DNA from: Chamaelirium japonicum
Taxonomy: Eukaryota > Streptophyta > Magnoliopsida > Liliales > Melanthiaceae
DNA length: 64,000 nt
Direction of reading: 5' to 3'
Assembly: GCA_947650365.1 (NCBI GenBank)
Contig: OX393553.1
Coordinates: forward strand, 40,409,949 to 40,473,948
In this document: one piece after another, positions 1 to 64,000 of the stretch
How positions within the stretch are numbered: the first letter of the stretch is position 1
How the letters are laid out: each line of letters opens with the position of its first letter
Made by a program: the position numbers and the translations under genes
The notes under the pieces: model-generated
What the model was told of the DNA's origin: nothing
Seen by the model: only the letters and a program-made list of their open reading frames with translations
Database searches by the model: none

Positions 1-1608
1 CACGATCCACACTACTTCATTCGTACGATCCATTCTATTTCATTCGTTCGATCTATTATTACGATCCATTCTAATTCATTCATATGATCCATTCTAATTC
101 ATTCACACAATCTATTCTAATTCATTCGTACGATCCATTCTAATTCATTAGCACGATCCATTCTAATTCATTCATACAATCCATTCTAATTCTTTTGCAC
201 GAATGTTTCCATTCTAATTCATTCGTATGATCCATTCTAATTCATTCGCACGATCCATTCTAATTCATTCGCACGGTCCATTCTAATTCATTCATACGAT
301 CCAATCTAATTCATTCATACAATCCATTCTAATTCATTCATACGATCTATTCTAATTCTTTTGCACGAATGTATCCATTCTAATTCATTCGTACGATCCA
401 TTCTAATTCATTCGAACGATCCATTCTAATTCATTCATACAATCCATTCTAATTCATTCGTACGATCCATTCTCATTCATTCATACGATCTATTCTAATT
501 CTTTCGCACGAATGTATCCATTCTAATTCATTCGTACGATCCATTCTAATTCATTCGCACTATCCATTCTAATTCATTCATACAATACCTTCTAATTCTT
601 TTGCACGAATGTATCCATACTAATTCATTCGTACGATCCATTCTAATTCATTCATACGATCCATTCTTATTCATTCCCATGAATGTATCCATTCTAATTC
701 ATAAGTACGATCCATTCTAATTCATTTATACGATCCAATCTAATTCATTCATACAATCCATTCTAATTCATTCATACGATCCATTCTAATTCATTCGTAC
801 GATCCATTCTAATTCATTCGTACGATCCATTCTAATTCATTCGCACGATCCATTCTAATTCATTCATACGATCCATTCTAATTCATTCGTACGATCCACT
901 CTAATTCATTCGCACGATCCATTCTAATTCATTCATACGATCCATTCTAATTCATTCATACAATCCATTCTAATTCTTTCACATGATCCATTCTAATTCA
1001 TTCGTACGATCCATTCTCATTCATTCGCACAATCCATTCTATTTCATTCATACGATCCATTCTATTTCATTCATACGATCCAATCTTACTCTACAATCTA
1101 TTCTTACTCAATCGTATGATCCATTCTAATTCTTTCGCACGAATGTATCCATTCTAATTCATTCGTACGATCCATTCTAATTCATTTGCACAACCCATTC
1201 TAATTCATTAATACGATCCATTCTAATTCCTTCGTACGATCCATTCTAATTCATTCGCACGAATGTATCCATTCTAATTCATTCATACGATCCAATCTAA
1301 TTCATTTGTACGATCCATTCTAATTCATTAATACGATCCAATCTAATTCATTCATACAATCCAATCTAATTCATTCGCACAATCCATTCTAATTCATTCA
1401 TACGATCCAATCTAATTCATTCATATGATCCATTCTAATTCATTCGCATGAATGTATCCATTCTAATTCATTCGTACGATCCATTATAATTCATTCATAC
1501 AATCCATTCTAATTTATTCGTACGATCCATTCTAATTCATTTGCATGATCCACTCTAATTCATTCATACGATCCAATCTAATTCATTCGTACGATCCATT
1601 CCTTCGTA
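1..1608 (+). repeat. Forward satellite block
   Basis: All units read CCATTCTAATTCATTC on the + strand. Mostly 23-bp units, with eight 28-bp units carrying GAATGTATCC or a close variant (near 199, 368, 508, 608, 680, 1141, 1260 and 1448). The block starts with a diverged unit (CACACTACTTC near 10) and an early short unit reading CTATTATTACGATCC (about 50-66). A copy of the recurrent cassette marked by CCCATGAATG lies near 664-770. No gene or other element is seen. Confidence 0.95.
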
Positions 1609-4437
1609 CGACGAATGAATTAGAATGGATCGTACGAATGAATTAGAATGGATCGTGCGAATGAATTAGAATGGATCGTACGAATGAATTAGAGTGGATA
1701 TATTCGTACGAAGGAATTAGAATGGATCGTACGAATGAATTAGAATAGATACATTCGTGCGAATGAATTAGAATGGATCGTATGAATGAATTAGAATAGA
1801 TTGTGCAAATGAATTAGAATGGATCGTGCGAATGAATTAGAATGGATCATACGAATGAATTAGAATGGATACATTCGTGCGTTCTAATTCATTCATACGA
1901 TCCATTCTAATTCAATCGCACGAATGTATCCATTCTAATTCATTCATACGATCCATTCTAATTCCATCGTACGATCCATACTAATTCGTACGAAGGATTT
2001 AGAATGGATCGTACGAAGGAATTAGAATGTACGATCTTTTCTAATTCATTCGTACGATCCATTCTAATTCATTCGTATGATCCATTCTAAGTCATTCGCA
2101 CGAATGAATCCATTCTAATTCATTCGTACGATCCATTCTAATTCATTCGTACAATCCATTCTATTTCGTTCGTACGATCCATTCTTACTCATTCGTATGA
2201 TCCATTCTAATTCATTCATACGATCCATTCTAATTCATTCATACGATCCATTCTAATTCATTCGAACGATCCATTCTAATTCATTCGCACAATCTATTCT
2301 AGTTCATTCATACGATCCATTCTAATTCATTCGCACGAATGTATCCATTCTAATTCATTCGTACGATCCATTCTAATTCCTTCGTATGATCCATTCTAAT
2401 TCATTCGCACAATCCATTCTAATTCATTCATACGATCTATTCTAATTCTTTCCCACGAATGTATCCATTCTAATTCATTCGCATGAATGTATCCACTCTA
2501 ATTCATTCGTATGATCCATTCTAATTCCTTCGTACGATCCATTCTATTTCATTCGTACAATCCATTCTTACTTATTCGTACGAAGAAATTAGAATGGATC
2601 GTGCGAATGAATTAGAATGGATCTTACGAATGAATTAGAATGGATCGTGCGAATGAATTAGAATGGATCGTACGAATGAATTAGAGTGGATATATTCGTA
2701 CGAAGGAATTAGAATGGATCGTACGAATGAAATAGTATAGATGGTACGAATGAATGAATTTGGATCGTGCTAATGAATTAGAATGGATCGTACGAATTAC
2801 GAATAAATTAGAATGAATTAGAATGGATCGTACGAATTACGAATTACGAATGAATTAGAATGGATCGTACGAATTACGAATGAATTAGAATGGATCGTAC
2901 GAATTACGAATGAATTAGAATGGATCGTACGAATGAATTAGAATGGATACATTCGTGCGAATGAATTAGAATGGATCATACGAATGAGTAAGAATGGATC
3001 GTACGAATGAAATAGAATGGATTGTACGATCCATTCTAATTCATTCGTACAATCCATTCTATTTCATTCGTACGATCCATTCTTACTCATTCGTACAATC
3101 CATTCTAATTCATTCGCACGAATGTATCCATTCTAATTCATTCGTACGATCCATTCTAATTCATTCGCACGATCTATTCTAATTCATTCGTACGATCCAT
3201 TCTAATTCTTTCGTACAATCCATTCTAATTCCTTCGTACGATCCATTCTAATTCATTCGTACGATCCATTCTAATTCATTCGTATGATCCATTCTAATTC
3301 ATTCGCACGATCCATTCTAATTCATTCACACGAATGTATCCATTCGTACGAATGAAATAGAATGGATCGTACAAATGAATTAGAATGGATAAATTCGTGC
3401 GAATGAATTAGAATGGATTGTATGAATGAATTAGATTGGATCGTATAAATGAATTAGAATGGATCGTACGTATGAATTAGAATGGATACATTAATGGGAA
3501 TGAATAAGAATGGATCGTATGGATACATTCGTGCGAATGAATTAGAATGGATAGATTCGTGCGAATGAATTAGAATGGATCGTATGAATGAATTAGATTG
3601 GATCGTATGAATGAAATAGAATGGATCGTATGAAGGAATTAGAATGGATCGTACGTATGAAGGAATATGAATTAGAATGGATCGTGCGAATGATTTAGAA
3701 TGGATCGTACGAATGAAATAGAATGGATCGTACGAATGAATTAGGATGGATAAATTCGTGCAAATGAATTAGAATGGATCATACGAATGAGTAAGAATGG
3801 ATCGTACGAATGAGTAAGAATGGATCGTACGAATGAGTAAGAATGGATCGTACGTATGATCCATTCTAATTCATTCGTACGATCCATTCTAATTCATTCG
3901 TACAATCCATTCTATTTTATTCGTACGATCGATTCTTACTCATTCCTACGATCCATTCTAATTCATTCACACGAATGTATCCATTCTAATTCATTTGTAC
4001 GATCAATTCTAATTCATTCGTACGATCCATTCTAATTCATTCGTATGATCCATTCTAATTCATTCCCACGATCCATTCAAATTCATTCGTACGATCCATT
4101 CTAATTCATTCGCAGGAATGTATACATTCTAATTCATTCGTACAATCCATTCTAATTCATTCGTACGATGCATTCTAATTCCTTCGTACGATCCATTCTA
4201 ATTCCTTCGTACGTAGGATCCATTCTAATTTTTTCGTACGATCCATTCGATTTCATTCGTATGATCCATTCTAATTCCTTCGTACGATCCATTCTTATTC
4301 ATTCGTACAATCCATTCTAATTCATTTGTACATTCGCACGATCCATTCTAATTCATTCATACGATCCATTCTAATTCATTCGCACAATCCATTCTATTTC
4401 ATTCGTACGATCCATTCTATTTCATTCGTACGATCCG
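1609..4437. repeat. Mosaic of short inverted satellite blocks
   Basis: Orientation alternates: reverse 1609-1880, forward 1881-1989, reverse 1990-2030, forward 2031-2579, reverse 2580-3026, forward 3027-3347, reverse 3348-3855, forward 3856-4437. The switch near 3347 is a perfect palindrome, CATTCGTACGAATG, made by abutting two opposite units. The block 1871-2060 is a compact double inversion found again near 44.5 and 55.7 kb. An open frame of 62 codons at 2994-3182 only reflects units with CTATTTC in place of CTAATTC and is not called a gene. Confidence 0.92.
2793..2930 (-). repeat. Local 30-bp satellite variant (7-bp CGAATTA expansion)
   Basis: Several consecutive reverse units carry an extra CGAATTA, reading GTACGAATTACGAATG where a normal unit reads GTACGAATG, so the unit grows to 30 bp or more. 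One unit has two extra steps. The variant is clustered here and was not seen as a run elsewhere in the window, which suggests recent local slippage followed by short-range amplification. Confidence 0.85.
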
Positions 4438-4754
4438 ATCGTACGAATGAATTTGAATGGATATATTCGTGCAAATGAATTAGAATGGATCGTATGAATG
4501 AATTTGAATGGATCGTACGAATGAATTAGAATGGATCGTACGAATGAATTAGAATGGATCATGCGAATGAGTAAGAATGGATCGTATGAATGAATTAGAT
4601 TGGACCATATGACTGAATTAGAATGGATCGTGCGAATGAATAAAAATGGATCGTATGAATGAAATAGAAAGGATTGTACGAATGAATTAGAATGGATCGT
4701 ACGAATGAATTAGAATGGATCGTATGAATGAATTAGAATGGACCGTGCGAATGA

Positions 4755-12442: not shown

Positions 12443-12983
12443 CCATGCATTCTAATTCATTCATACGATCCATTCTAGTTCATTCGCACGTACGAATGAA
12501 TTAGAATGGATCATACGAATGAAATAGATGGATACATTCGTGCGAATGAATTAGAATAGATTGTATGAATGAATTAGATTGGATTGTATGAATGAATTAG
12601 AATGGATCGTGCGAATTAATTAGAATGGATCGTATGAATGAATTAGATTGGTTCGTATTCATACGATCCAATCTAATTTATTGATACGATCCATTCTAAT
12701 TCATTCGTATGATCCATTCTAATTCCTTTGTACGATCCATTGTATTTCATTCGTACGATCCATTCTTACTCATTCGTATGATCCAGTCTAATTCATTCGC
12801 ACGAATGTATCCATTCTAATTCATTCATACAATCCATTCTAATTCATTCGTACGATCCATTCTAATTCATTCGCACGAATGTATCCATTCTAATTCATTC
12901 GTACGATCCATTCTAATTCATTCGCACGAATGTATCCATTCTAATTCATTCGTACGATCCATTCTAATTCCTTCGTACGATCC
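12443..12983. repeat. Short inverted satellite blocks
   Basis: Forward 12443-12489, reverse 12490-12656, forward 12657-12983. The last forward block contains three closely spaced 28-bp units and ends in CTTCGTACGATCCAATG, a turn into reverse units that recurs near 17030, 30769 and 35833. From about 12733 the sequence matches the segment starting near 30570. Confidence 0.92.
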
Positions 12984-15548
12984 AATGAATTAGAATAGAT
13001 TGTGCGAATGAATTAGAATTGATCGTACGAATGAATTAGAATGGATACATTCGAGCGAATGAATTAGAATGGATATATTCGTGCGAAAGAATTAGAATAG
13101 ATCAAATGAATGAATTAGAATGGATCGTATGAATGAATTAGAATGGATCGTGCGAATGAATTAGCATGGATCGTGCTAATGAATTAGAATGGAACGTACG
13201 AATGAATTAGAATAGATTGTGCGAATGAATTAGAATGGATCGTGCGAATGAATTAGAATGGATCGTACGAATGAATTAGAATGGATCGTATGAATGAATT
13301 AGAATGGATCGTACGAATGAATTAGAATGGATACATTCGTGCGAATGAATTAGAATGGATCGTATGAAATGAATTAGAATGGATCGTATGAGTGAATTCG
13401 AATGGATCGTGCGTGAGTAAGAATGGATCGTACGAATGAAATAGAATGGATTGTACGAATGAATTAGAATGGATACAGAATGAATTAAAATGGATCATGC
13501 GTCGTACGAATGAATTAGAATGAACCGTATTAATGAATTAGAATGGATCGTGCGAATGAATTAGAATGGATCGTACGAATGAATTAGAATGGATCGTATG
13601 AATGAATTAGAATGGGTACATACGAATGGATTAGAATGGATCGTATGAATGAATTAGAATGGATTGTGCGTCACACTTATGAATTAGAATGGATCGTATG
13701 AATGAATTAGATTGGATCGTATGAATGAATTAGAATGGATCATTCGATATAGTAAGAATGGATCGTACGAATGAAATAGAATAGATCGTATGAATGAATT
13801 TGAATGGATCGTGCTAATGAATTAGAATTGATCGTACGAATAAATTAGAATAGATTATGCGAATGAATTAGAATGGATCATTCGAATGAATTAGAATGGA
13901 TCATGCGAATGAATTAGAATGGATCGTACGAATGAATTAGAATGGATCGTACGAATGAATTAGAATGGATACATTCGTGCAAAAGAAATAGAATGGATTG
14001 TATGAATTAATTAGAATGGATCGTGCGAATGAATTAGAATGGATCGTACGAATGAATTAGAATGGATACATTCGTGCGAATGAATTAGAATGGATTGTAC
14101 GAATGAATTAGAATGGATCGTACGAATGAATTAGAATGGATCGTGTGAAAGAATTAGAATGAATTGTATGAATGAATTAGAATGGATCGTATGAATGAAT
14201 TACAATGGATCATGTGAATGAATTAGAATGGATCGTACGAATGAATAAGAATGGATAGACAAGTGAATTAGAATGGATCGTGCGAATGAATCAGAATGGA
14301 TCGTACGAATGAATTAGAATGGATACATTCGTGCGAATGAATTAGAATGGATCGTACGAATAAGTAAGAATGGATCGTACGAACGAAATAGAATGGATCG
14401 TACGTATCAATTAGAATGGATACATTCATGGGAATGAATTAGAATGGATCGTACGAAGAAATTAGAATGGATCGTATGAATGAATTAGAATGGATACTTT
14501 CGTGCAAAAGAATTAGAATGGATTGTATGAATGAATTAGAATGGATCGTGCTAATGAATTAGAATGGATCGTACGAATGAATTAGAATAGATTGTGCGAA
14601 TGAATTAGAATGGATCGTACGAATGAATTAGAACGGATCGTAATAATGGATCGTACGAATGAAATAGAATGGATCGTACGAATGAATTAGCATGGATCGT
14701 GCTAATGAATTAGAATGGAACGTACGAATGAATTAGAATAGATTGTGCGAATGAATTAGAATGGATCGTACCAATGAATTTGAATGGATCGTGCTAATGA
14801 ATTAGAATGGATCGTACTTAAGAATTAGAATGGATCGTACGTGCGAATGAATTAGAATAGATTATACGAATGAAATAGAATGGATCATACGAATGAAATA
14901 GAATGGATCGTACGAAGGAATTAGAATGGATCGTATGAATGAATTAGAGTGGATATATTCGTGCGAATGAATTAGAATGGATCGTACGAATGAATTAGAA
15001 TGGAATGGATACATTCATGGGAATGAATTAGAATGGATCGTACAAAGGAATTAGAACGGATCATACGAATGAATTAGAATGGATCGTGCTAATGAATTAG
15101 AGTGGATACATTCGTGCGAATGAATTAGAATGGATCATATGAATGAATTAGATTGGATCATATTAATGAATTAGAATGGATTGTGCGAATGAATTAGAAT
15201 GGATCGTACGAATCAATTAGAATGGATACATTCGTGTGAATGAATTAGAATGGATCGTGCGAATGAATTAGAATGGATCGAATTAGAATGGATACATTCG
15301 TTCGAATGAATTAGAATGGATCATACGATTGAGTAAGAATGGATCGTACGAATGAAATTGAATGGATCGTATGAATGAAATAGAATGGATTGTACGAATG
15401 AATTAGAATGGATCGTACGAATGAAATAGAATGGATCGTGTGAAAGAATTAGAATGGATCGTGCTAATGAATTAGAAGGGATCGTACGAATGACTTAGAA
15501 TAGATTGTGCGAATGAATTAGAATGGATCGTACGAATGAATTAGAATG

Positions 15549-15798
15549 GATACATTCGTACGACGGAATTAGAATGGATCGTACGAAGGAATTAGAATGG
15601 ATCGTACGTATGAATTAGAATAGATCGTACGAATGAATTAGAATGGATACATTCGTGCGAATGAATTAGAATGGATACATTCGTACGACGGAATTAGAAT
15701 GGATCGTACGAAGGAATTAGAATGGATCGTACGTATGAATTAGAATAGATCGTACGAATGAATTAGAATGGATACATTCGTGCGAATGAATTAGATTG
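15549..15798 (-). repeat. 125-bp tandem higher-order repeat, two copies
   Basis: Two near-identical 125-bp copies, each made of two 28-bp and three 23-bp units (56+69). Both start with the rare GATACATTCGTACGACGG (15549 and 15674) and share a CGTACGTATG unit and an ATAGATCGTACG unit in the same order. Their near identity implies a recent duplication. Confidence 0.92.
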
Positions 15799-15951
15799 GA
15801 GCGTATGAATGAATTAGAATGGATCCTGCGAATGAATAAAAATGGATCGTACGAATGAAATAGAATGGATTGTACGAATGAATTAGAATGGATCGTACGA
15901 ATGAATTAGAATGGATCGTATGAATGAATTAGAATGGATCGTGCGAATGAA

Positions 15952-15969
15952 TTCTAATTCATTCGTACG
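15952..15969 (+). repeat. Single-unit forward island
   Basis: Same turn as at 4755: GAATGAATTCTAATTC, then CATTCGTACGTGCGAATG back into reverse orientation. Its counterpart in the macro-repeat is at about 34792. Confidence 0.88.
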
Positions 15970-16923
15970 TGCGAATGAATTAGAATGGATCGTACGAAGG
16001 AATTAGAATGGATCGTACGAAGGAATTAGAATGGATATATTCGTGCGAATGAATTAGAATGGATCGTACGAATGAATTAGAATAGATTGTGCGAATGAAT
16101 TAGAATGGATCGTACGAATGAATTAGAATGAATACATTCGTGCGAATGAATTAGAATGGATCGTATGAATGAATTAGATTGGATCGTATGAATGATTTAG
16201 AATGGATCGTGCGAAGGAATTAGAATGGATCGTACGTGCGAATGAATTAGAATGGATTGTACGAATGAATTAGAATGGATTGTACGAATGAATTAGAATG
16301 GATCGTGCGAACGAATTAGAATGGATCGTATGAATGAATTAGAATAGATCGTATGAATGAATTAGAATGGATCGTATTAATGAATTAGAATAGATCATAC
16401 GAATGAATTAGAATGGATCGTACGAATGAATTAGAATGGATCGTATGAATGAATTAGAATGGATAGATACGATTGAATTAGAATGGATCATATGAATGAA
16501 TTAGATTGGATCGTATGAATGAATTAGAATGGATCGTACGAATGAATTAGAATGGATACATTCGTGCGAATAAATTAGAATGGATCATACGAATGAGTAA
16601 GAACGGATTGTACGAATGAAATAGAATGGATTGTACGAATGAATTAGAATGGATCGTACGAATGAATTAGAATGGATACATTCGTGCGAATGAATTAGAA
16701 TGGATCGTATGAATGAATTAGAATGGATAATTAGAATGGTTCGTATGAATGAATTAGAATGGATCGTATGAATGAATTAGAATGGATCGTGCGAATGAAT
16801 TAAAATGGATCGTATGAATGAATTAGTATGTATCGTGCTAATGAATTAGAATGGAACATACTAATGAATTAGAATGGATCGTAGAATGGATCGTATGAAT
16901 GAATTAGATTGGATCATATGTCG

Positions 16924-18454
16924 TACAATCCATTCTAATTCATTCGTACGATCTATTCTAATTCATTCGCACGAATGTATCCATTCTAATTCATTCGTAC
17001 GATCCATTCTAATTCTTTCGTACGATCCAATGAATTAGAATAGATTGTGCGAATGAATTAGAATGGATCATACGAATGAATTAGAATGGATACATTCGTG
17101 CGAATGAATTAGAATGGGTACATTCGTGCGGAAGAATTAGAATAGATCGTATGAATGAATTAGAATGGATCGTATGAATGAAATTGAATTGATCGTACGA
17201 ATGAATTAGAATAGATTGTGTGAATGAATTAGAATGGATTGTATTAATGAATTAGAATGGATCGTACGAATAAATTAGAATAGATCGTACGAATGAATTA
17301 GAATGGATCGTACGAATGAATTAGAATGGATCGTACGAATGAATTAGAATGGATCGTACGAATGAATTAGAATGGATCATGCTAATGAATTAGAATGGAT
17401 CGTACGAATGAATTAGAATGGATATATTCGTGCAAATGAATTAGAATGGATCGTATGAATGAATTAGAATGGATCGTACAAATGAATTAGAATGGATACA
17501 TTCGTGCGAATGAATTAGAATGGATCGTACGAATGAATTAGAATGGATCGTACGAATGAATTAGAAAGGATCGTGCGAAAGAATTAGAATAGATTGTATG
17601 AACGAATTAGAATGGATCGTGCGACTGAATTAGAATGGATCGTACGAATGACTTAGAATGGATCGTATGAATGAATTAGAATGGATCTTGCGAATGAATT
17701 AGAATGGATCGTACGAATGAATTAGAATGGATACATTCGTGCGAATGAATTAGAATGGATCGTACGAATGAATTACAATGGATCGTACGAATGAAATAGA
17801 ATGGATCGTACGTATGAATTAGAATGGATCGTGCGAATGAATTAGAATGGATCGTATGAATGAATTAGAATGGATACATTCGTGCGAATGAATTAGAATG
17901 GATCGTATGAATGAATTAGCATAGATTGTACGAATGTATCCATTCTAATTCATTCTAATTCATTCATACGATCCATTCTAATTCATTTGCACGAATATAT
18001 CCATTCTAGTTCATTCGTATGATCCATTCTAATTCACTCGTACGATCCATTCTAATTCATTCGCACAATCTATTCTAATTCATTCGTACGATCGATTCTA
18101 ATTCATTTGCACGATCCATTCTAATTCATTCGCACAATCTGTTCTAATTCCGAATGAATTAGAATGGATCATATGAATGAATAAGAATGGATCGTGTGAA
18201 AGAATTAGAATGGATTGTATGAATGAATTAGAATGGATCATATCAATGAATTAGAATGGATCGTGCGAATGAATTAGAATGGATCGTACGAATGAGCAAG
18301 AATGGATCGTACGAATGAAATAGAATGGATCATACGAATGAATTAGAATGGATCGTGCGAATGAACTATAATGGATCGTACGAATGAATTAGAGTGGATA
18401 CATTCGTACAAATGAATTAGAATGGATCATACGAATGAGTAAGAATGGATCGTA
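16924..18454. repeat. Inverted block mosaic
   Basis: Forward 16924-17030, reverse 17031-17935, forward 17936-18150, reverse 18151-18454. The entry TGTCGTACAATCC and the turns near 17030, 17935, 18150 and 18454 all recur in the same order at 35726, 35833, 36661, 36880 and 37235. The last three recur again at 21490, 21704 and 22008. The start of the second forward block carries a 10-bp duplication, ATTCTAATTCATTCTAATTC. Confidence 0.93.
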
Positions 18455-20349
18455 CTCTAATTCCTTCGCACGAATGTATCCATTCTAATTCATTCGTACG
18501 ATCTATTCTAATTCATTCGCACGATCCATTCTAATTCATTCATACAATCCATTCTAATTCTTTTGCACGAATGTATCCATTCTAATTCATTCGTACGATC
18601 CATTCTAATTCATTCGTACAATCCATTCTAATTAATTTGCATGATCCATTCTAATTCATTCATACGATCAAATCTAATTCATTCATACGACCCATTCTTA
18701 CTCATTCGTATGATCCATTCTAATTCATTCGTATGATCCATTCTAATTCATTCGTACGATCCATTCTAATTCATTCATACGATCCATTCTAATTCATTTG
18801 CACGAATATATCCATTCTAATTCATTCGTACGATCCATACTAATTCATTCGTACGATCCATTCTTATTCATTCCCATGAATGTATCCATTCTAATTCATA
18901 CGTACAATCCATTCTAATTCATTTATACGATCCAATTTAATTCATTCATACAATCCATTCTAATTCATTCGCACGAATTTATCCATTCTAATTCATTCGT
19001 ACGATCCATTCTAATTCATTCGCACAATCTATTCTAATTCATTCGTACGTTCCATTCTAATTCATTAGCACGATCCATGCTAATTCATTCGTACGATCCA
19101 TTCTATTTCATTAGTACGATCCATTCTAATTCATACGATCCATTCTATTTCATTTATATGATCCATTCTAATTCATTCGCACGATCCATTCTAATTCATT
19201 CATACGATCCATTATAATTCATTCGTACGATCCATTCTAATTCATTCGCACGATCCATTCTAATTCATTCATACGATCCAATCTAATTCATTCATACGAT
19301 CCATTCTAATTCATTCGCACAATCTATTCTAATTCATTCGTACGTTCCATTCTAATTCATTAGCATGATCCATGCTAATTCATTCGTACGATCCATTCTA
19401 TTTCATTCGTACGATCCATTCTAATTCATACGATCCATTCTATTTCATTCATACGATCCATTCTAATTCATTCGCACGATCCATTATAATTCATTCGTAC
19501 AATCCATTCTATTTCATTCGTACGATCCATTCTAATTCATACGATCCATTCTATTTCATTCATACGATCCATTCTAATTCATTCGCACGATCCATTATAA
19601 TTCATTCATACGATCCATTCTAATTCATTCGTACGATCCATTCTAATTCATTCTCACGATCCATTCTAATTCATTCATACGATCCAATCTAATTCATTCA
19701 TACGATCCATTCTAATTCATTCGCACAATCTATTCTAATTCATTCGTACGATCCATTCTAATTCATTCGTACGATCCATTCTAATTCATTCGTACGATCC
19801 ATTCTAATTCATTAATACGATCCAATCTAATTCATTCATACGATCCATTCTAATTCCTTCGTACGATCCATTCTAATTCATACAATCCATTCTATTTCAT
19901 TCATACGATCCATTCTAATTCATTCGCACGATCCATTCTAATTCATTCGTACGATCCATTCTAATTCATTCGTACGATCCATTCTAATTCATTCGCACGA
20001 TCCATTCGAATTAATTCACACGATCCATTCTAATTCATTCATACCATCCATTCTAATTCATTCGTACGATCCATTCTAATTCATTCGCACGATCCATTCT
20101 AATTCATTCATACGATCCATTCTAATTCATTCAAACAATCCATTCTAATTCATTCGCACGAATGTATCCATTCTAATTCATTCGTACGATCCATTCTAAT
20201 TCATTCGCACGATCCATTCTAATTCATTCATACGATCCATTCTAATTCATTCGCACGATCCATTCTAATTCTTTCATACGATCCATTCTAATTCATTCGT
20301 ACGATATATTCTAATTCATTCGCACGATCCATTCTAATTCATTCGCACG
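18455..20349 (+). repeat. Forward satellite block with 295-bp higher-order repeats
   Basis: Entered through GATCGTACTCTAATTC. Contains the six-unit cassette (CCCATGAATG near 18869, CGCACGAATTTATCC near 18970), then two 295-bp repeats set by TTAGCACGATCCATGCT (19065) and TTAGCATGATCCATGCT (19360), then a 111-bp duplication. It ends in CATTCGCACGAATGGATCG, a turn shared with 23909, 27079 and 39042. An 83-codon open frame at 19372-19623 is explained by the 111-bp duplication. Confidence 0.94.
19390..19611 (+). repeat. 111-bp tandem duplication producing an 83-codon open frame
   Basis: Two 111-bp copies (four 23-bp units plus one 19-bp unit). Because 111 is a multiple of three, the frame is kept and the predicted peptide repeats every 37 residues. 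The usual TAA of CTAATTC is lost where the unit reads CTATTTC, and is passed out of frame elsewhere. The open frame has no feature beyond the repeat: no signal peptide, domain or promoter context. It is absent from the sister copy near 22.9 kb, which lacks this duplication. I do not call it a gene. Confidence 0.9.
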
Positions 20350-21490
20350 AATGGATCGTACGAATGAATTAGAATGGATCGTACGAGTACGAATGAGTAA
20401 GAATGGATCGTACGAATGAAATAGAATGGATTGTATGAATGAATTAGAATGGATCGTACGAATGAATTAGAATGGATCATGTGAAAGAATTAGAATGGAT
20501 CGTATGAATGAATTAGAATGGATATATTCGTGCAAAAGAATTAGAATGGATTGTATGAATGAATTAGAATGGATCGTGCTAATGAATTAGAATGGATCGT
20601 ACGAATGAATTAACAGTATGAATGAATTAGAGTAGATTGTGCGAAACGTACGAATGAATTAGAACAGATTCTGCGAATGAATTAGAATGGATCGTACGAA
20701 TGAATTAGAATGGATAAATTCGTGCGAATGAATTAGAAGGGATTGTACGAATGAATTAGAATGGATCGTACGAATGAATTAGAATGGATCGTACGAATGA
20801 ATTAGAATGGATACATTCATGGGAATGAATTAGAATGGATTGTACGAATGAATTAGAATGGATCATACGAATGAATTAGAATGGATATATTCGTGCAAAT
20901 GAATTAGAATGGATCGTTTGAATGAATTAGAATAGATCATACGAATGAATTAGAATGGATCGTACGAATAAATTAGAATGGATCGTACGAATGAATTAGA
21001 ATGGATCATACGAATGAGTAAGAATGGATCGTATGAATGAATTAGATTGGATCATATGAATGAATTAGAATGGATTTTGCGAATGAATAAGAATGGATCG
21101 TACGAATGAAAAAGAATGGATTGTACGAATGAATTAGAATGGATCGTACGAATGAAATAGAAAGGATTGTATGAATGAATTAGAATGAATTAGGATCGTA
21201 CGAATGAATTAGAATGAATGAATTAGAATGAATGAATTAGGATCGTACAAATTAGAATGGATCATACGAATGAAAAAGAATGGATTGTACGAATGAATTA
21301 GAATGGATCGTACGAATGAAATAGAAAGGATTGTATGAATGAATTAGAATGAATTAGGATCGTACGTATGAATTAGAATGGATCGTGCGAATGAATTAGA
21401 ATGGATCGTATGAATGAATTAGAATGGATACATTCGTGCGAATGAATTAGAATGGATCGTATGAATGAATTAGAATAGATTGTACGAATG
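20350..21490 (-). repeat. Reverse satellite block
   Basis: Reverse units with rare markers CGTACGAGTACGAATGAG (about 20382) and CAGTATGAATG (about 20614). Near 21140-21330 there is a 165-bp duplication that includes runs of the truncated step GAATGAATTAG repeated every 12-14 bp. Ends in GTACGAATGTATCC, turning forward on the half-dyad of a 28-bp unit. A related copy of 20.37-21.12 kb lies near 34.03-34.74 kb. Confidence 0.93.
21141..21345 (-). repeat. 165-bp duplication with 12-14 bp sub-repeats
   Basis: The marker GAATGAAATAGAAAGG occurs twice about 165 bp apart (about 21149 and 21314). Between them lie truncated units reading GAATGAATTAG repeated every 12-14 bp, with the GGATCGT part lost. 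The sister copy shows the same pair about 164 bp apart (about 24782 and 24946), with sub-repeats near 24815-24880 and 24985-25035. Confidence 0.85.
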
Positions 21491-41960: not shown

Positions 41961-44670
41961 GATCGTATGAATGAATTAGAATGGATCGTACGAATGAATT
42001 AGAATGGATACAATCGTCGCACAATCTATTCTAATTCAGTCGTACGATCCATTCTAATTCATTCGTACGATCCATTCTATTTCATTCACACGATCCATTC
42101 TAATTCATTCGCACGAATGTAACCATTCTAATTCATTCATACGATCCATTCTAATTCATTCATACAATCCATTCTAATTCTTTCACACGATCCATTCTAA
42201 TTCATTCGTATGATCCATTCTAATTCATTCGTACGATCCATTCTAATTCATTCGTACGACCCATTCTAATTCATTCGCACGAATGTATCCATTCTAATTC
42301 CTTTATACGATCCATTCTAATTCATTCGCACAATCTATTCTAATTCATTTATATGATCCATTCTAATTCATTTGCACGAATGTATCTATACGAATGAATT
42401 AGAATGGATACAATCGTGCGAATGAATTAGAATGGATCATATGAATGAGTAAGAATGGATCGTACGAATGAAATAGAATAGATTGTACGAATGAATTAGA
42501 ATGGATTCATTCGTACGAATGAATTAGAATAGATTGTGCGAATGAATTAGAATGGATCGTACGAATGAATTACAATGGATAAATTCGTGCGAATGAATTA
42601 GAATGGATTGTATGAATGAGTAAGAATGGATCGTACGAATGAATTAGAATGGATTGAATTAGAATGAATCGTACGAATGAATTAGAATGGATCGTATGAA
42701 TGAACTAGAACAATGGAATTAGAATGGATCGTACGAATGAATTAGAATGGATCGTACGAAGGAATTAGAATGGATCGTACGAATGAACTAGAATGGATAC
42801 ATTCGTGCGAATGAATTAGAATGGATACATTCGTGCGAAAGAAATAGAATAGATCGTATGAATGAATTAGAATGGATCGTGCGAATGAATTAGAATGGAT
42901 CGTACGATCCATTCCTACTCATTCGTTTGATCCATTCTAATTCATTCACGCGAATGTATCCATTCTAATTCATTCGTAATGGATACATTCGTGCGAATGA
43001 ATGAGAATGGATCGTACGAAGGAATTAGAATGGATCGCACGTACGAAGGAATTAGAATAGATTGTGCGAATGAATTAGAATGGAACATACGGTCTAATTC
43101 ATTCGCACGATCCATTCGAATTCACTCATACGATCCATTCTAATTCATTCATACGATCCATTCTAATTCATTCGTACGATCCATTCTAATTCATTCGTAC
43201 GATCCATTCTAATTTATTCGCACGATCCATTCTAATTCATTCATACGATCCAATCTAATTCATTCATACGATCCAATCAAATTCATTCGTATGACCTATT
43301 CTAATTCATTCGCACGAATGTATCTATTCTAATTCATTCATAAGATCCTTTCTAATTCATTCGTACGATCCATTCTAATTCATTCGCAAGATCCATTCTA
43401 ATTCTAATTCATTCGCACAAATGTGACCATTCTAATTCATTCGTACATGTATGAATTCATTCGTACGATCCATTCTAATTCATTCATACGATCCATTCTA
43501 ATTCATTCATACAATCCATTCTATTTCATTCGTACGATCCATTCTAATTCATTCGTACGATCCATTCTAATTCATTCGTACGATCCATTCTAATTCATTC
43601 ATACGATCCATTCTAATTCCTTCATACGATCCATTCTAATTCATTCGTACGATCCATTCTAATTCATTCGCACGATCCATTCTAATTCATTCATACGATC
43701 CAATCTAATTCATTCGTACGATCCATTCTAATTCATTCGTACGATCCAATCTAATTCATTCGTACGATCCATTCTAATTCCTTCGTACAAATGTATGGAT
43801 TGTACGAATGAATTAAAATGAATCGTACGAATGATATAGAATGGATTGTACGAAGGAATTAGAATGGATCATACGAATGAATTAGAATGGATCGTACGAA
43901 TGAATTATATTGGATCGTATGAATGAATTAGAATGGATCGTGCGAATGAATTAGAATGGATCGTACGAACGAATTATAATGGATCGTATGAATGAATTAG
44001 AATGGATCGTACAAAGGATGGATACATTCGTGCGAATGAATTAGAATGGATCGTACGAATGAATTAGAATGGATCGTACGAATGAATTAGAATGGATCGT
44101 ATGAATGAATTAGAATGGATCATACGAATGAGTAAGAATGGATCGTACGAATGAAATAGAATGGATTGTACGAATGAATTAGAATGGATCATACGAATGA
44201 ATTAGATGGATACATTCGTGCGAATGAATTAGAATGGATCATACGAATGAATTAGAATGGATCGTACGAATGAATTAGAATAGATCGTACATTCTAATTC
44301 CTTCGTATGATCCATTCTAATTCCTTCGTACGAATTAGAATGGATCGTACGAAGGAATTAGAATCGATCGTATGAATGAATTAGAATGGATACATTCGTG
44401 CGAATGAATTAGAATGGTTCGTATGAATGAATTAGAATGGATCGTATGAATGAATTAGAATGGATCGTGCGAATGAATTTGAATGGATCGTACGAAGGAA
44501 ATAGAATGGATACATTCGTGCGTTCTAATTCATTCATACGATCCATTCTAATTCATTCACACGAATGTATCCATTCGAATTCATTCGTACGATCCATTCT
44601 AATTCCTTCGTAAGATCCATTCTAATTCGTACGTAGGAATTAGAATTGATCGTATGAAGGAATTAGAATG
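41961..44670. repeat. Dense mosaic of inverted blocks
   Basis: Reverse 41961-42018, forward 42019-42390, reverse 42391-42905, forward 42906-42979, reverse 42980-43091, forward 43092-43795, reverse 43796-44290, forward 44291-44330, reverse 44331-44521, forward 44522-44630, reverse 44631-44670. Turns up to 43091 match 28912-30060. The last ones (44521, 44630, 44670) match a cassette at 1880-2030 and 55736-55884. No gene seen. Confidence 0.9.
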
Positions 44671-45949
44671 TACGATCTATTCTAATTCATTCGTACGATC
44701 CATTCTAATTCATTCGTATGATCCATTCTAATTCATTCGCACGAATGTATCCATTCTAATTCATTCGTACGATCCAATCTAATTCATTCGTACAATCCAT
44801 TCTATTTCACTCATACGATCCATTCTTACTCATTCGTATGATCCATTCTAATTCATTCATACGATCCATTCTAATTCATTCGTACGATCCATTCTAATTC
44901 ATTCGTACGATCCATTCTAATTCATTCGCACGAATGTATCCATCCTTTGTACGATCCATTCTAATTCATTCATACGATCCATTCTAATTCATTCATACGA
45001 TCCATTCTAATTCATTCGCACGATCCATTCTAATTCATACGATCAATTCAAATTCATTCGCACAATCTATTCTAATTCATTCGTACGATCCATTCTAATT
45101 TATTCGTACGATCTATTCTAATTTATTCGTATGATCCATTCTAATTCATTCGTACGATGCACGATCCATTCTAATTCATTCATACGATCTAATCTAATTC
45201 ATTCATACGATCCATTCTAATTCATTCGTACGATCCATTCTAATTCATTCACACGATCCATTCTAATTCATTAATACGATCCATTCTAATTCATTCGTAC
45301 GACGCACGATCCATTCTAATTCATTCATATGATCCAATCTAATTCATTCATACGATCCATTCTAATTCATTCGTACGATCTATCCTAATTCATTTGCACA
45401 ATCCATTCTAATTCATTCATACGATCCAATCTAATTCATTCATACGATCCATTCTAATTCATTCGCACAATCTATTCTAATTCATTCGTACGATCCATTC
45501 TAATTCATTCGTACGATCTATTCTAATTCATTCATACGATCCATTCTAATTCATTCATACGACGCACGATCCATTCTAATTCATTCATGCGATCCAATCT
45601 AATTCATTCATACGATCCATTCTAATTCATTCGTACGATCCATTCTAATTCATTCGCACGATCCATTCTAATTCATTAATACGATCCATTCTAATTCATT
45701 CGTACGACACACGATCCATTCTAATTCATTCATACGATCCAATCAAATTCATTCATATGATCCATTCTAATTCATTCGTACGATCCATTCTAATTCATTC
45801 GCACGATCTATTCTAATTCATTCATATGATCCAATCTAATTCATTCATACGATCCATTCTAATTCATTCGCACAATCTATTCTAATTCATTCGTACAATC
45901 CATTCTAATTCATTCGTACGATCCATTCTAATTCATTCGCACAATCTAT
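44671..45949 (+). repeat. Forward satellite block with a 405-bp higher-order repeat
   Basis: Forward units. The second half is set by short 7-bp steps reading GACGCAC or close variants, which give CGTACGACGCACGATCC. Ends in CGCACAATCTATGAATTAG, where forward CTATTC is cut and replaced by reverse ATGAATTAG. No gene seen. Confidence 0.94.
45160..45949 (+). repeat. 405-bp higher-order repeat, about two copies
   Basis: CACGATCC following the extra 7-bp step occurs at 45160, 45305, 45565 and 45710, giving spacings of 145, 260 and 145 bp. The repeat period is therefore 405 bp, built of a 145-bp and a 260-bp part. Second copy 45565-45949 is cut slightly short by the orientation switch. The CAATCT unit and the CGCACAATCTATTC unit hold the same places in both copies. 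Confidence 0.9.
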
Positions 45950-48170: not shown

Positions 48171-49037
48171 GTACGATCCATTCAAATTCCTTCGTACTAT
48201 CCATTCTAATTCATTTGTACGATCCATTCTAATTCATTCGTACGATCCATTCTAATTCATTCATACGATCCAATCTAATTCATTCATACGATCGATTCTT
48301 ATTCATTCATATGATCCATTCTAATTCATTCGTACGATCGTACGATCTATTCTATTTTATTCGTATGATCCATTCTAATTCATTCATACGGTCCATTCTA
48401 ATTCATTCGTACGAACCATTATAATTCCGATCCATTCTAATTCATTTGTACGATCCATTCTAATTTATTCGTACGATCCATTCTAATTCATTCGCACGAT
48501 CCATTCTAATTCATTCGTACGATCCATTCTATTTCATTCGTACGATCCATTCTTACTCATTCGTACGATCCATTCTAATTCATTCGCACGAATGTATCCA
48601 TTCTAATTCATTCGTACGATCCATTCTAATTCCTTCGTACGATCCATTCTAATTCCTTTGCACGACCCATTATATTTCATTCGTATGATCCATTCTAATT
48701 CATTCGTATGTTCCATTCTAATTCATTCGCACGAATGTATCCATTCTAATTCACTCATACGATCCATTCTAATTCATTCGTACGATCAATTCTAATTCAT
48801 TCTTACTCATTCGTACTCGTACGATCCATTCTAATTCATTCGTACGATCCATTCTAATTCATTCGCACAAATGTATCCAGATCCATTCTAATTCATTCGC
48901 ACGATTCATTCTAATTCATTCGCACGATCCATTCTAATTCATTCGTACGATCCATTCTTACTCATTCGTACGATCCATTCTAATTCATTCGCACGAATGT
49001 ATCCATTCTAATTCATTCGTACGATCCATTCTAATTT

Positions 49038-49063
49038 TGTATGAATGAATTAGAATGGATCGT
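49038..49063 (-). repeat. Single reverse unit in a forward block
   Basis: Forward CTAATTTTG runs into TATGAATGAATTAGAATGG and then GATCGTGTATCCATTC, returning to forward. One unit is inverted within 3.5 kb of otherwise uniform orientation. I did not see this junction elsewhere in the window. Confidence 0.85.
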
Positions 49064-51035: not shown

Positions 51036-52560
51036 AATGAAATAGAATGGATATATTCGTGCAAATGAATTAGAATGGATCGTATGAATAAATTAGAATA
51101 AATTGTGCGAATGAATTAGAATGGATCGTATGAGTGAATTCGAAAGGATCGTGCGAGTGAATTAGAATGGATTGTACGAATGAATTAGAATGGATCGTAC
51201 GAATGAATTAGAATGGATACATTCGTGCAAAAGAATTAGAATGGATTGTATGAATGAATTAGAATGGATCGTGCAAATGAACTAGAATGGATCGTGCAAA
51301 TGAAATAGAGTGGATCGTACAAATGAATTAGAATAGATTGTGCGAATGAATTAGAATGGATCGTACGAATGAAATAGAATGGATCGGTAAGAATAAATTG
51401 AACGAATGAATTAGGATGGATCGTGCGAATGAATTAGAATGGATCGTACGAATGAATTAGAATGGATCGTACGAATGAGTAAGAATGGATCGTACGAATG
51501 AAATAGAATGGATTGTACGAATGAATTAGAATAGATTGTGCGAATGAATTAGAATAGATCGTACCAATGAATTAGAATGGATACATTCGTGCGAATGAAT
51601 TAGATTGGAACGTACGACTGAATTAGAATGGATACATTCGTGCGAAAGAATTAGAATGGATCGTATGAATAAATTAGAATGGACCGTACGAATGAATTAG
51701 AATAGATCGTACGAATGAATTAGAATGGATCGTACGAATGAATTAGATTAGATACATTCGTGCGAATGAATTTGAATGGATCATACGAATGAGTAAGAAT
51801 GGATCGTACGAATGAAATAGAATGGATTGTACGAATGAATTAGAATGGATCGTGCGAATGAATTAGAATGGATCGTACGAATGAGTAAGAATGGATCGTG
51901 CGAATGAATTAGAATGGATCGTACGAATGAGTAAGAATGGATCGTACGAATGAAATAGAATGGATCATACGAATGAATTAGAATGGATCGTGCGAATGAA
52001 TTAGAATGGATCGTACGAATGAATTAGAATAGATTGTGCGAATGAATTAGAATGGATCGTACGAATGAATTAGAATGGATCGTACGAATGAATTAGAATG
52101 GATCGTACGAATGAATTAGAATGGATCGTGCGAATGAATTAGAATGGATCGTACGAATGAATTAGCATGGATCGTGCTAATGAATTAGAATGGAACGTAC
52201 GGATGAATTAGAATGGATCGTACGAATGAATTAGAATGGATCGTATGAATGAATTAGAATGGATCATGCGAATGAATTAGAATAGATCGTATGAATGAAA
52301 TAGAATGGATCGCTTGAATTAGAATGGATCGTACGAAGTAATTAGAATGGATCGTATGAATGAATTAGATTGGATCGTATTAATAAATTAGAATGGATCA
52401 TACGAATGAATTAGAATGGATCGTATGAAAGAATTAGAATGGATTGTATGAATGAATTAGAATGGATCGTATGAATGAATTAGAATGGATTGTACGAAGG
52501 AATTAGAATGGATTGTACGAACGAATTAGAATGGATCGTACGAATGATTTAGAATGGATA
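51036..52560 (-). repeat. Reverse satellite block
   Basis: Reverse units. Ordered runs of a GAGTAAG unit, a GAAATAG unit and a GATTGTACG unit recur at about 51470, 51790 and 51925. TTAGCA/TGCTAA pair at 52162. Ends in GATACATTCTAATTCC, joining reverse to forward through the shared CATTC. No gene seen. Confidence 0.94.
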
Positions 52561-55970: not shown

Positions 55971-58318
55971 GATCATACTAATGAATTAGAATGGATCGTA
56001 CGAATGAATTAGAATAGATCGTACGAATGAATTAGAATGGATCGTACGAATGAATTAGAATAGATCGTACGAATGAGTAAGAATGGATCGTACGAATGAA
56101 ATAGAATGGATTGTACGAATGAATTAGAAAGGATCGTACGAATGAATTAGAATGGATCGTTTGAAAGAATTAGAATGAATTGTATGAATGAATTAGAATT
56201 GATCATGCGAATGAATTAGAATGGATCGTACGAATGAATTAGAATGGATCGTACGAATTAATTAGAATGGATCATACGAATAAGTTAGAATGGATCGTAC
56301 GAATGAATTAGAATGGATCGTACGAATGAATTAGAATGGATATATTCGTGCAAATGAATTAGATTGGATCGTATGAATGAATTAGAATGTATCGTACGAA
56401 TGAATTAGAATGGATCGTGTGTAAGAATTAGAATGGATTGTATGAATGAATTAGAATTGATCGTGCGAATGAATTAGAATGGATCGTACGAATGAATTAG
56501 AAAGGATCGTACGAATGAATTAGAATGGATCGTATGAATGAAATAGAATGGATCGTATGAATTAGAATGGATCGTACGAATGAAATAGAATAGATCGTAC
56601 AAATGAATTAGAATGGATCATTCGTGCGAATTAATTAGAATGGATCGTACGAATGAATTAGAATGGATCGTGCGAATGAATTAGAATGGATCGTGCGAAT
56701 GAATTAGAATAGATGCATTCGTGCGAAACAATTAGAATGGATCGTACGAATGAATAAGAATAGATTGTGCGAATGAATTAGAATGGATCGTACGAATGAA
56801 TTAGAATGGATACATTCGTGCTAATGAATTAGAATGGATCGTACGATTGAATTAGAATAGATTATGCGAATGAATTAGAATGGATCGTACGAATGAATTA
56901 GAATGGATCGTACGAATGAAATAGAATGGATCGTACGAATGAATTAGCATGGATCGTGCTAAGGAATTAGAATGGATCGTACAAAGGAATTAGAATGGAT
57001 TGTGCGAATGAATTAGAATGGATCGTACGAATGAATTATTAAGGATCGTAATAATGGATCGTACGAATGAAATAGAATGGATCGTACGAATGAATTAGCA
57101 TGGATCATGCGAATGAATTAGAATGGATCGTGTGAAAGAATTAGAATGGATTGTATGAATGAATTAGAATTGATCGTGCAAATGAATTAGAATGGATCGT
57201 ACGAATGAATTAGAATGGATCGTATGAATGAAATAGAATGGATCATATGAATTAGAATGGATCGTACGAATGAAATAGAATAGATCGTACGAATGAATTA
57301 GAATGGATACATTCGTGCGAATGAATTAGAATGGATCGTACGAATGAATTAGAATGGATCGTGCGAATGAGTTAGAAAGGATACAATCGTGCGAAAGAAT
57401 TAGAATGGATCATACGAATGAATTAGAATAGATTGTGCGAATGAATTAGAATGGATCGTACGAATGAATTAGAATGGATACATTCGCGCTAATGAATTAG
57501 AATGGATCGTACAAATGAATTAGAATAGATTGTGCGAATGAATTAGAATGGATCGTACGAATGAATTAGAATGGATCGTAATAATGGATTGTACGAATGA
57601 AATAGAATGGATCGTACGAATGAATTAGCATGGATCGTGCTAAGGAATTAGGATGGATCGTACAAAGGAATTAGAATGGATTGTGCGAATGAATTAGAAT
57701 GGATCGTACGAATAAATTAGAATGGATCGTAATAATGGATCGTATGAATGAAATAGAATGGATCGTACGAATGAATTAGCATGGATCATGCGAACGAACT
57801 AGAATGGATCGTACGAATGAATTAGAATGGATCGTATGAATGAATTAGAATGGATTGTGCAAATGAATTAGAATGGATCGCACGAATGAATTAGAATGGA
57901 TACATTCGTGCGAATGAATTAGAATGGACCGTATGAATGAATTAGAATAGATTGTGTGAATGAATTAGAATGGATCATGCGAATGAATTAGAATGGATCG
58001 TATGAATGAATTAGAATAGATTGTGCGAATGAATTAGAATGGATCGTACGAATGAATTAGAATGGATCGTAATAATGGATCGTACGAATGAAATAGAATG
58101 GATCGTGCGAATGAATTAGCATGGATCGTGCGAATGAATTAGAATGGATCATACAAATGAATTAGAATGGATCGTATGAATGAATTAGAATTGATTGTGC
58201 GAATGAATTAGAATGGATCGTGCGAATGAATTAGAATGGATACATTCGTGCGAATGAATTAGAATGGATCTTGCTAATGAATTAGAATTGATCGTGCGAA
58301 TGAATTAGAATGGATCGT
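55971..58318 (-). repeat. Reverse satellite block with a 0.7-kb duplication
   Basis: Reverse units. Contains TTAGCA/TGCTAA pairs at 56944 and 57625, and 13-bp short units GATCGTAATAATG near 57046, 57575, 57725 and 58065. The offset between matching markers is about 680-712 bp, giving two tandem copies over about 56.35-57.8 kb. Ends at GATCGTTCTAATTTATTCG. No gene seen. Confidence 0.93.
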
Positions 58319-62947: not shown

Positions 62948-64000
62948 GATCCATTCTACTTAATTTGTATGATCGATTCTAATTTCTAATTCATTCATAC
63001 GATCCATTCTAATTCATTCGCACGATCCATTCTAATTCATTCATACGATCCATTCTAATTCATTCATACGATCCATTCTAATTCATTCGTATGATCCATT
63101 CTAATTCATTCGCACGATCCATTCTTACTCATTCTTACGATCCATTCTAATTCATTCGCACGATCCATTCTAATTCATTCATATGATCCATTCTAATTCA
63201 TTCGCACGATTGTATCCATTCTAATTTCTTCGTACGATCCATTCTAATTCATTCATACGATCCATTCTAATTCATTCGTACGATCCATTCTAATTCCTTT
63301 GTACGATCCATTCTAATTCATTCATACGATCCATTCTAATTCATTCGTACGATCCATTCTAATTCATTCGCACGATCCATTCTAATTCATTCATACGATC
63401 CAATCTAATTCCTTCGTACGATCTATTCTTACTCATTCGCACAATCTATTCTAATTCATTCGTACGATCCATTCTAATTCATTCGTACGATCCATTCTAA
63501 TTCATTCGAACGATCCATTCTAATTCATTCGCACGAACGTATCCATTCTAAGTCATACGTACGATCTATTCTAATTCATTCGCACGATCCATTCTAATTC
63601 ATTCGTACGATCCATTCTAATTCATTAGCACGATCCATTCTAATTCCTTCGTACGATCCATTCTACTTCCTTCGTACGATCAATTCTAATTCCTTCGTAC
63701 GATCCATTCTAATTCCTTCGTACGATCCATTCTATTTCATTCGTATGATCCATTCTAATTCATTCGCACGATCCATTCTAATTCCTTCGTACGATCCATT
63801 CTAATTCATTCATACGATCCATTCTAATTCATTCGTACGATCCATTCTAATTCCTTTGTACGATCCATTCTAATCCATTCATACGATCCATTCTAATTCA
63901 TTTGTACGATCCATTCTAATTCATTCGCACGATCCATTCTAATTCATTCATACGATCCAATCTAATTCCTTCGTACGATCCATTCTTACTCATTCGCACA
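62948..64000 (+). repeat. Forward satellite block running off the window
   Basis: Forward units to the last base, opening with diverged units (CTACTTAATTTG, GATCGATTCTAATTTC). From about 63630 several successive units carry TTCCTTCGTACG. The array clearly continues past 64000. No gene seen. Confidence 0.95.

What the first reader, a model, noticed from the sequence alone, without database searches (positions are those of the whole stretch)
1..64000. A 23-bp satellite with about 100 orientation switches in 64 kb
Seen directly: units flip between CCATTCTAATTCATTC and GAATGAATTAGAATGG about 92 times between blocks, plus five single-unit islands, with block sizes from one unit to 3.9 kb. Known: most tandem satellites are head-to-tail over long stretches, and flips are usually rare. 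Inference: the array is repeatedly remodelled by foldback or template-switch events. Neighbouring opposite blocks could also form very long hairpins or give double-stranded RNA if transcribed.
Basis: partly seen in the sequence, partly recalled or inferred. Interest (0 to 1): 0.8.

Follow-up and report, generated by a model that had tools for sequence, protein, structure and literature searches.

The report
Known plant centromere satellite, frequently flipped
The window lies inside one of the many centromere patches of the plant Chionographis japonica, whose short repeat is already known to change direction often; what is added here is a count of the flips and evidence that many of them are inherited copies spread by duplication rather than fresh events.

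Summary
A strand-aware parse finds 95 alternating blocks and 94 switches, 26 to 3,936 bp long, and practically every base is satellite. The array is not new. The genome matches the published Chionographis japonica assembly: the 12 largest contigs sum to 1,090.67 Mb (1,090.73 Mb in print) and N50 is 81.11 Mb in both. The unit is the holocentromere satellite Chio1/Chio2 (23/28 bp). Its mixture of forward and reverse arrays was published in 2023 and called "frequently alternating" in 2025.

Many switches are copies: 93 scorable junctions carry 51 breakpoint signatures, against 85-90 per 94 random joins. Direct duplicates of at least 800 bp and 90% identity span 28 of 94 switches, inverted ones none. 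One window junction occurs 74 times on nine chromosomes, and some of the 16 copies fetched share flanks. Foldback-type palindromes fit few switches, with threshold-dependent support; paired-breakpoint inversion is not seen. Genome-wide I estimate roughly 370,000-485,000 switches. An assembly artefact is unlikely, but no raw reads were held.

The parts
1..64000 (.). Chio1/Chio2 satellite array (23-bp unit CCATTCTAATTCATTCGTACGAT and a 28-bp variant with 5 extra bases), 95 blocks of alternating orientation
   Evidence: Viterbi parse: 27,754 bp plus and 36,211 bp minus after merging, 35 bp (9246-9280) between blocks unassigned
12985..16920 (-). longest one-way block, 3,936 bp
49037..49062 (-). 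smallest block, 26 bp
17134..20597 (.). first copy of a tandem direct duplication (second copy 20679-24155) that carries several switch points
   Evidence: 92.8% identity over 3,511 aligned columns
20679..24155 (.). second copy of that duplication
12657..30768 (.). large stretch whose switch order recurs, with internal gains and losses, in 30446-43796 (the two stretches meet at about 30.4-30.8 kb)
   Evidence: collinear direct matches at offsets 17,789 (89.5%), 18,735 (93.2%), 18,804 (91.4%), 11,968 (90.2%), 13,048 (95.4%), 13,025 (91.9%) and 13,077 (90.3%); shared junction families
30446..43796 (.). second copy of the large stretch
43802..44437 (-). left arm of an inverted duplication (right arm 44523-45155, spacer about 86 bp); it appears to mirror the switches at 44628 and 44669 (inference)
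   Evidence: 93.7% identity over 637 columns; 44333/44628 and 44289/44669 fall in shared junction families at 100-bp flanks
44523..45155 (+). right arm of the same inverted duplication
51834..52307 (-). arm of an inverted duplication whose partner 52561-53040 covers most of the plus block 52561-53072
   Evidence: 91.3% over 480 columns, gap 254 bp
57668..58270 (-). arm of an inverted duplication, partner 58554-59163
   Evidence: 91.0% over 613 columns, gap 284 bp
12974..13009 (+). 36-bp sequence across a plus/minus switch, also at 17019 and 30758, dispersed in the genome
   Evidence: 74 exact copies on nine of the twelve chromosomes and on unplaced contigs; shared flanks in part of the copies fetched
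17923..17958 (+). 36-bp sequence across a minus/plus switch, also at 21477, nearly private to the window
   Evidence: 3 exact copies in the whole assembly, two of them here

Best explanation
This is part of a holocentromere unit of Chionographis japonica, made of the CENH3-associated satellite Chio1/Chio2. Orientation switches arise occasionally by short-microhomology joining or template switching, sometimes as foldback inverted duplications. They are then multiplied by direct duplication of segments of several hundred bases to several kilobases within the array, and by transfer of such segments between centromere units and chromosomes. Shown here: the switches, the copied junctions, the direct duplications, a few inverted duplications, and junctions present on several chromosomes with partly shared flanks. 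Inferred: the enzymology (replication template switching, unequal exchange, conversion or circular DNA), the order of events, and any effect on centromere function.
For: Identity: 12 large contigs summing to 1,090.67 Mb with N50 81.11 Mb, against 1,090.73 and 81.11 Mb in print; 2,141 units of 23 bp and 293 of 28 bp among 2,610; the published 9-mer TTCGTACGA lies in the unit. Copying: 51 distinct breakpoint signatures in 93 scorable junctions against 85-90 per 94 in six null batches; 36-43 of 94 junctions fall in 15-16 multi-copy families above the null maximum, depending on flank length. Duplicates of at least 800 bp and 90%: 14 direct and 1 inverted alignments, 0 in three nulls; 28 of 94 switches lie in the direct ones, 0 in the inverted one. 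The longest exact direct match is 358 bp and the longest inverted one 170 bp, against 101-123 bp in three nulls. Dispersal: 74 copies of one junction on nine chromosomes; of 168 flank pairs from 16 fetched copies plus the 3 in the window, 16 exceed the 95% null on both sides, where about 0.4 would be expected if sides and pairs were independent. Joining: shared bases at junctions average 1.38 against 0.61 in simulated joins (p = 0.0002), or 1.20 with one junction per signature (p = 0.002).
Against: Within the window only 36-43 of 94 junctions sit in families, and 20-27 of these are copies beyond the first of their family; the rest may be independent or older. The excess of shared bases is small: 65 of 93 junctions share 0 or 1 base. 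The adjacent-arm test is not significant (p = 0.17 for 207 and 0.13 for 202 junctions of window and samples), and the nearby-palindrome excess depends on the threshold, so the origin of most switches is unresolved. In the 8 sampled stretches neither nearby inverted (6 of 49, 4.8 expected) nor nearby direct pairs (4 of 54, 5.3 expected) are in excess. In the flank test 152 of 168 pairs do not exceed the null on both sides, so identical junctions may partly have arisen more than once. CENH3 binding at this exact window was not tested. The assembly held differs slightly from the printed figures: 3,253 contigs and 1,518,659,071 bp against 3,786 and 1,526,137,861 bp for the printed primary assembly before scaffolding.
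Confidence: 0.75

Rival explanations
1. Nearly every switch is an independent foldback or template-switch event.
For: 3 of 13 inverted pairs of at least 400 bp and 91% lie within 500 bp, 0.2 expected; similar pairs in L027 (gap 164, 92.7%) and L030 (gap 227, 95.0%); gapless palindromes near switches at 2907-3167 and 9281-9540.
Against: Signatures repeat far more than in random joins; 28 of 94 switches lie inside long direct duplicates; arms beside switches are no more alike than arms of other switches; the palindrome excess varies with threshold (p 0.001-0.22) and one of three shuffled nulls had 5 nearby pairs at the loosest cut.
Confidence: 0.15
2. Switches come from ordinary inversions of segments inside a one-way array, with two matched breakpoints each.
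For: Blocks alternate and overall orientation is balanced: 3,228,999 exact forward and 3,182,370 reverse 16-mers genome-wide.
Against: Matched breakpoint phases at both ends are not enriched: 5 of 193 blocks against 9.1 expected. Insertion that keeps the host register is not clearly enriched either: 31 of 193 against 25.2 (p = 0.13); 11 of 89 in the window (11.6 expected) and 20 of 104 in the samples (13.6 expected, p = 0.047). Later duplications and deletions could have erased the signal.
Confidence: 0.12
3. The switches are assembly errors.
For: Very repetitive array; contig joins in such DNA can be wrong.
Against: HiFi reads at 58.5x assembled with hifiasm, with switches about every 0.7 kb, well inside a HiFi read (read length recalled). 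The same junctions recur on different chromosomes with diverged flanks. The authors report the alternation themselves. No N in the window.
Confidence: 0.02
4. Alternating orientation is selected because inverted blocks can fold or help holocentromere chromatin.
For: Frequent alternation in holocentric Chionographis against consistently oriented arrays in the monocentric sister Chamaelirium luteum; macro-dyad arrays in Tribolium; large fold energy across switches.
Against: No symmetry of neighbouring arms as a group; the patterns are explained by neutral copying; one pair of sister genera is one comparison.
Confidence: 0.1

Closest known systems
Chio1/Chio2 centromeric satellite of Chionographis japonica (Kuo et al. 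2023, PMC10264360; outline with abstract, sections 8 and 14, and passages read)
   Different: Nothing that separates the window from it. In the parts read the paper gives no count of switches and no analysis of junction families; figures and supplements were not available to me
Chama satellite of Chamaelirium luteum (Kuo et al. 2025, PMC12722358; section 7 and passages read)
   Same: Centromeric satellite of the sister genus, shares the 9-mer TTCGTACGA
   Different: 60-bp unit, monocentric chromosomes, arrays consistently oriented
Tribolium madens TmSat1/TmSat2 macro-dyad arrays (PMC13081366; passages read)
   Same: Centromere-linked satellite arrays with orientation switches at recurrent, conserved inversion sites
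   Different: Mostly two subarrays per array, dyads of a few to tens of kb tending to symmetry; here blocks have a median of 358 bp and no arm symmetry as a group
Human alpha-satellite live arrays (PMC9549924; passages read)
   Same: Centromeric tandem repeat with higher-order copies
   Different: A figure legend describes an inversion in centromere 1 as the single such event in all live centromeres; here about 1.5 switches per kb

Membership tests
Chio1/Chio2 satellite (Chionographis japonica) | monomers of 23 bp (dominant) and 28 bp, differing by 5 bp and one substitution | tested here: met
   2,141 and 293 of 2,610 units; commonest 28-bp unit ends GCACGAATGTAT, commonest 23-bp unit ends GTACGAT
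Chio1/Chio2 satellite (Chionographis japonica) | 9-mer TTCGTACGA shared with Chama | tested here: met
   present in the consensus unit; published statement
Chio1/Chio2 satellite (Chionographis japonica) | lies in the C. japonica assembly: 12 scaffolds, 1,090.73 Mb, N50 81.11 Mb | tested here: met
   C1-C12 sum to 1,090,673,439 bp and N50 falls on C8, 81,106,678 bp (lengths, total; sums by hand, assuming contigs are numbered by size)
Chio1/Chio2 satellite (Chionographis japonica) | most abundant repeat, about 16-17% of the genome | tested here: inconclusive
   extrapolation from exact 16-mers gives about 327 Mb, 21.5% of the assembly: same order, somewhat higher
[quoted passage not shown]
   94 switches in the window, 117 in 78 kb of other satellite; only a few units were sampled
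Chio1/Chio2 satellite (Chionographis japonica) | bound by CENH3 | not testable with these tools
   no ChIP data held; published for the satellite
Satellite macro-dyad symmetry (Tribolium type) | neighbouring opposite arrays tend to symmetry around the inversion site | tested here: not met
   sequence similarity of arms not above that of unrelated switches; equality of block lengths was not tested
Satellite macro-dyad symmetry (Tribolium type) | recurrent, conserved inversion sites | tested here: met
   junction families, one with 74 exact copies

The most novel reading that the evidence does not exclude
Alternation is not only tolerated but maintained: selection for short inverted blocks that can fold, or for junction motifs, keeps Chio arrays mixed in the holocentric lineage, while the monocentric sister keeps one-way arrays, so orientation mixing is part of how a holocentromere unit is built.
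Probability: 0.08. Interest if true: 0.75.

Novelty: already known. Interest (0 to 1): 0.35.

Why it matters
The alternation itself is published. What could be useful is that switch junctions behave as recognisable scars. Some are nearly private to one array (3 copies) and some are spread over nine chromosomes (74 copies), partly with shared flanks. Kuo et al. 2025 write that the mechanism behind the chromosome-wide distribution of centromere units remains unknown. A tree of junctions could date and map that spread and separate interlocus conversion or circular-DNA reinsertion from local amplification. If common descent holds for most copies, an open question becomes directly testable from data already in hand.

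Tried and rejected
Paired-breakpoint test for simple inversion and for register-keeping insertion: neither clearly enriched. Adjacent-arm foldback tests: not significant. The first was underpowered because it required long blocks on both sides and so left out the switch at 44,522; the HSP-distance test was added for that reason. It found a few short-spacer palindromes, but its p-values ran from 0.001 to 0.22 over five thresholds. Clustering junctions at a low similarity threshold merged almost everything, and the null showed that threshold to be useless, so thresholds were then set just above the null maximum. A duplicate scan without an identity cut gave matches near 82% that unit-shuffled arrays also give; only identities clearly above that are used. 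alignments can overlap one another, so 14 and 1 are alignments, not events. One of 94 junctions was not scorable. The genome-wide excess of plus/minus (41,326) over minus/plus (26,876) exact junctions is not read as biology: alternating blocks must give nearly equal numbers, and the patterns catch only 39 of 211 switches in the 142 kb used for calibration.

Paper searches: searches returned no paper; nothing new beyond PMC12722358; one search was seen as a listing only; some searches gave the papers opened. What is said not to be in print rests (Chionographis japonica with holocentromere and satellite: 13 papers; Chionographis with Chio1: 2 papers) and on the parts of PMC10264360 and PMC12722358 read.
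Full report
What is there. The window (C5:40,409,949-40,473,948 of a 1,518,659,071-bp, 3,253-contig assembly) is satellite throughout. The unit is CCATTCTAATTCATTCGTACGAT (23 bp), with a 28-bp variant that has five extra bases; of 2,610 units cut out of the longer blocks, 2,141 are 23 bp and 293 are 28 bp, and the parse matches the consensus at 93% of aligned bases. Strand-aware parsing gives 94 switches between 95 blocks, stable for switch penalties from -14 to -30; 0 switches in three one-way controls.

What it is. The organism was not given, but three things identify it. The 23/28-bp pair is the published Chio1/Chio2 satellite of Chionographis japonica, whose unit shares the 9-mer TTCGTACGA with the sister-genus satellite. 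The twelve largest contigs sum to 1,090,673,439 bp and the assembly N50 is 81,106,678 bp, against 1090.73 Mb and 81.11 Mb in print; total length and contig number differ slightly from the printed primary assembly (1,526,137,861 bp, 3,786 contigs). Kuo et al. [quoted passage not shown] Kuo et al. 2025 write of the 'frequently alternating orientation' of Chio arrays, in contrast to consistently oriented arrays in Chamaelirium luteum. So the finding as given is known.

How typical it is. Fifteen 10-kb stretches were fetched: seven hold no satellite, and the eight that do (five on C5 near the window, two on C1, one on C12) have 1.10-2.21 switches per kb, together 117 switches in 78.4 kb. Genome-wide there are 26,876 minus/plus and 41,326 plus/minus junctions with an exact 16-mer on both sides within 30 bp, against 3,985,311 same-direction pairs. 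Calibrated on the window plus samples, this suggests about 369,000 switches by the junction ratio or 485,000 by density, in roughly 327 Mb of satellite (both rough). The ratio of opposite to same-direction pairs is 0.017 genome-wide and 0.023 in window plus samples, so the sampled places may be somewhat richer in switches than average.

Where the switches come from: copies. If each switch were an independent join, 94 junctions would show about 85-90 distinct breakpoint-phase signatures; 93 scorable ones show 51. With thresholds just above the maximum of the pooled null, 36-43 of 94 junctions fall in 15-16 multi-copy families (20-27 of them beyond the first of a family), with 23-35 direct and 0-5 inverted links, depending on flank length. 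The longest exact direct repeat is 358 bp and the longest inverted 170 bp; three nulls reach 101-123 bp. Long direct duplicates are visible: 17134-20597 with 20679-24155 at 92.8%, and a collinear series linking about 12.7-30.8 kb with 30.4-43.8 kb. At 800 bp or more and 90% or more there are 14 direct and 1 inverted alignments and none in three nulls; 28 of 94 switches lie within the direct ones and none within the inverted one. At 400 bp and 92% the figures are 16 and 3 alignments, none in the nulls, and 27 and 6 switches.

Copies between units and chromosomes. Single junction sequences are very common: one exact 44-bp plus/minus palindrome occurs 3,221 times (of 41,326) and one 49-bp minus/plus junction 2,532 times (of 26,876), in several separate regions of C1 among the places listed (only the first 100 rows are shown). 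These are close to consensus, so repeated origin is possible. A more distinctive 36-bp sequence across the switch at 12,984 has 74 exact copies on nine of the twelve chromosomes (C2, C5-C12) and on unplaced contigs, in both directions. I fetched 16 of them and compared flanks outside the searched motif, together with the 3 in the window. Left flanks average 0.685 against 0.543 in a phase-matched null, right flanks 0.627 against 0.577. Of 168 pairs, 44 (left) and 28 (right) exceed the 95% null, and 16 exceed it on both sides (pairs are not independent). The 15 such pairs printed link the window with copies on C2, C11 and C12, and also C6 with C8, C7 with C12, and C9 with C10 and C52. So common descent is supported for part of the family and not shown for the rest. 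Junctions in sampled C12 and C1 stretches also match each other at up to 0.95. A second window junction has only 3 exact copies, two of them here, so some switches are young or local.

Where the first switch of a family comes from. Shared bases at junctions exceed those of simulated joins (mean 1.38 against 0.61; 1.20 with one per signature, p = 0.002), and three junctions lie on the palindrome TCGTACGA or most of it. Inverted pairs of at least 400 bp and 91% lie within 500 bp of each other in 3 of 13 cases (0.2 expected, p = 0.001). Other thresholds gave 7 of 101 (p = 0.001), 3 of 45 (0.03), 3 of 38 (0.02) and 1 of 16 (0.22), and three shuffled nulls at the loosest gave 1 of 48, 5 of 46 and 1 of 75. 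The clearest pair, 43802-44437 with 44523-45155, would explain the switch at 44,522 and seems to mirror two older ones (inference). Sampled stretches hold similar pairs but no overall excess (6 of 49, 4.8 expected). Arms beside switches are not more alike than arms of unrelated switches (p = 0.13-0.17; 4 and 7 junctions above the 99% null where about 2 are expected). Matched inversion breakpoints are not enriched (5 of 193, 9.1 expected). My reading is that foldback or template switching makes some switches and that the origin of most cannot be seen any more.

Function. Strands crossing a switch fold far more stably than one-way strands of equal length (RNA -303 against -91, DNA -188 against -41 kcal/mol, n = 29 each). 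In the published data CENH3 chromatin correlates negatively with the transcriptome (r = -0.50).

Comparison. Human live alpha arrays are described with a single inversion. Tribolium arrays have conserved inversion sites but long arms that tend to symmetry. Chio differs from both by short blocks without arm symmetry as a group. Verdict: true, already known, with a quantitative addition that many switches are inherited and some are dispersed copies.

Noticed in passing
window, 28-bp units throughout: The five extra bases of the 28-bp variant complete an inverted repeat (CATTCG-CA-CGAATG, 116 places; the perfect palindrome CATTCGTACGAATG at 8 places, counted on both strands as 16), so the variant itself may be a frozen tiny foldback at the same dyad. 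Inference only.
   Followed up: partly
L031 (C5:40,360,000-40,369,999): Another direct duplication carrying switches, 1-2114 with 4134-6253 at 94.7%; block sizes repeat in order.
   Followed up: no
L021 (C12:1-10,000), 2776-4274: About 1.5 kb of non-satellite DNA inside the array at the very start of the chromosome-scale contig.
   Followed up: no
small unplaced contigs, for example L009-L016: 59 full-length COX1 matches on separate small contigs among 100 candidates: organelle DNA or its nuclear copies left in the assembly.
   Followed up: no
window 1882-2028, 44523-44669, 55737-55883; L024 2762-2908; L027 6025-6171: A small module of a 106-bp plus and a 41-bp minus block recurs at least five times.
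   Followed up: partly
window junctions: Breakpoints fall more often in unit positions 14-21 (the TCGTACGA dyad): 78% of 93 junctions and 71% of 51 signatures have one side there, against 53% in simulated joins. No test was run.
   Followed up: no
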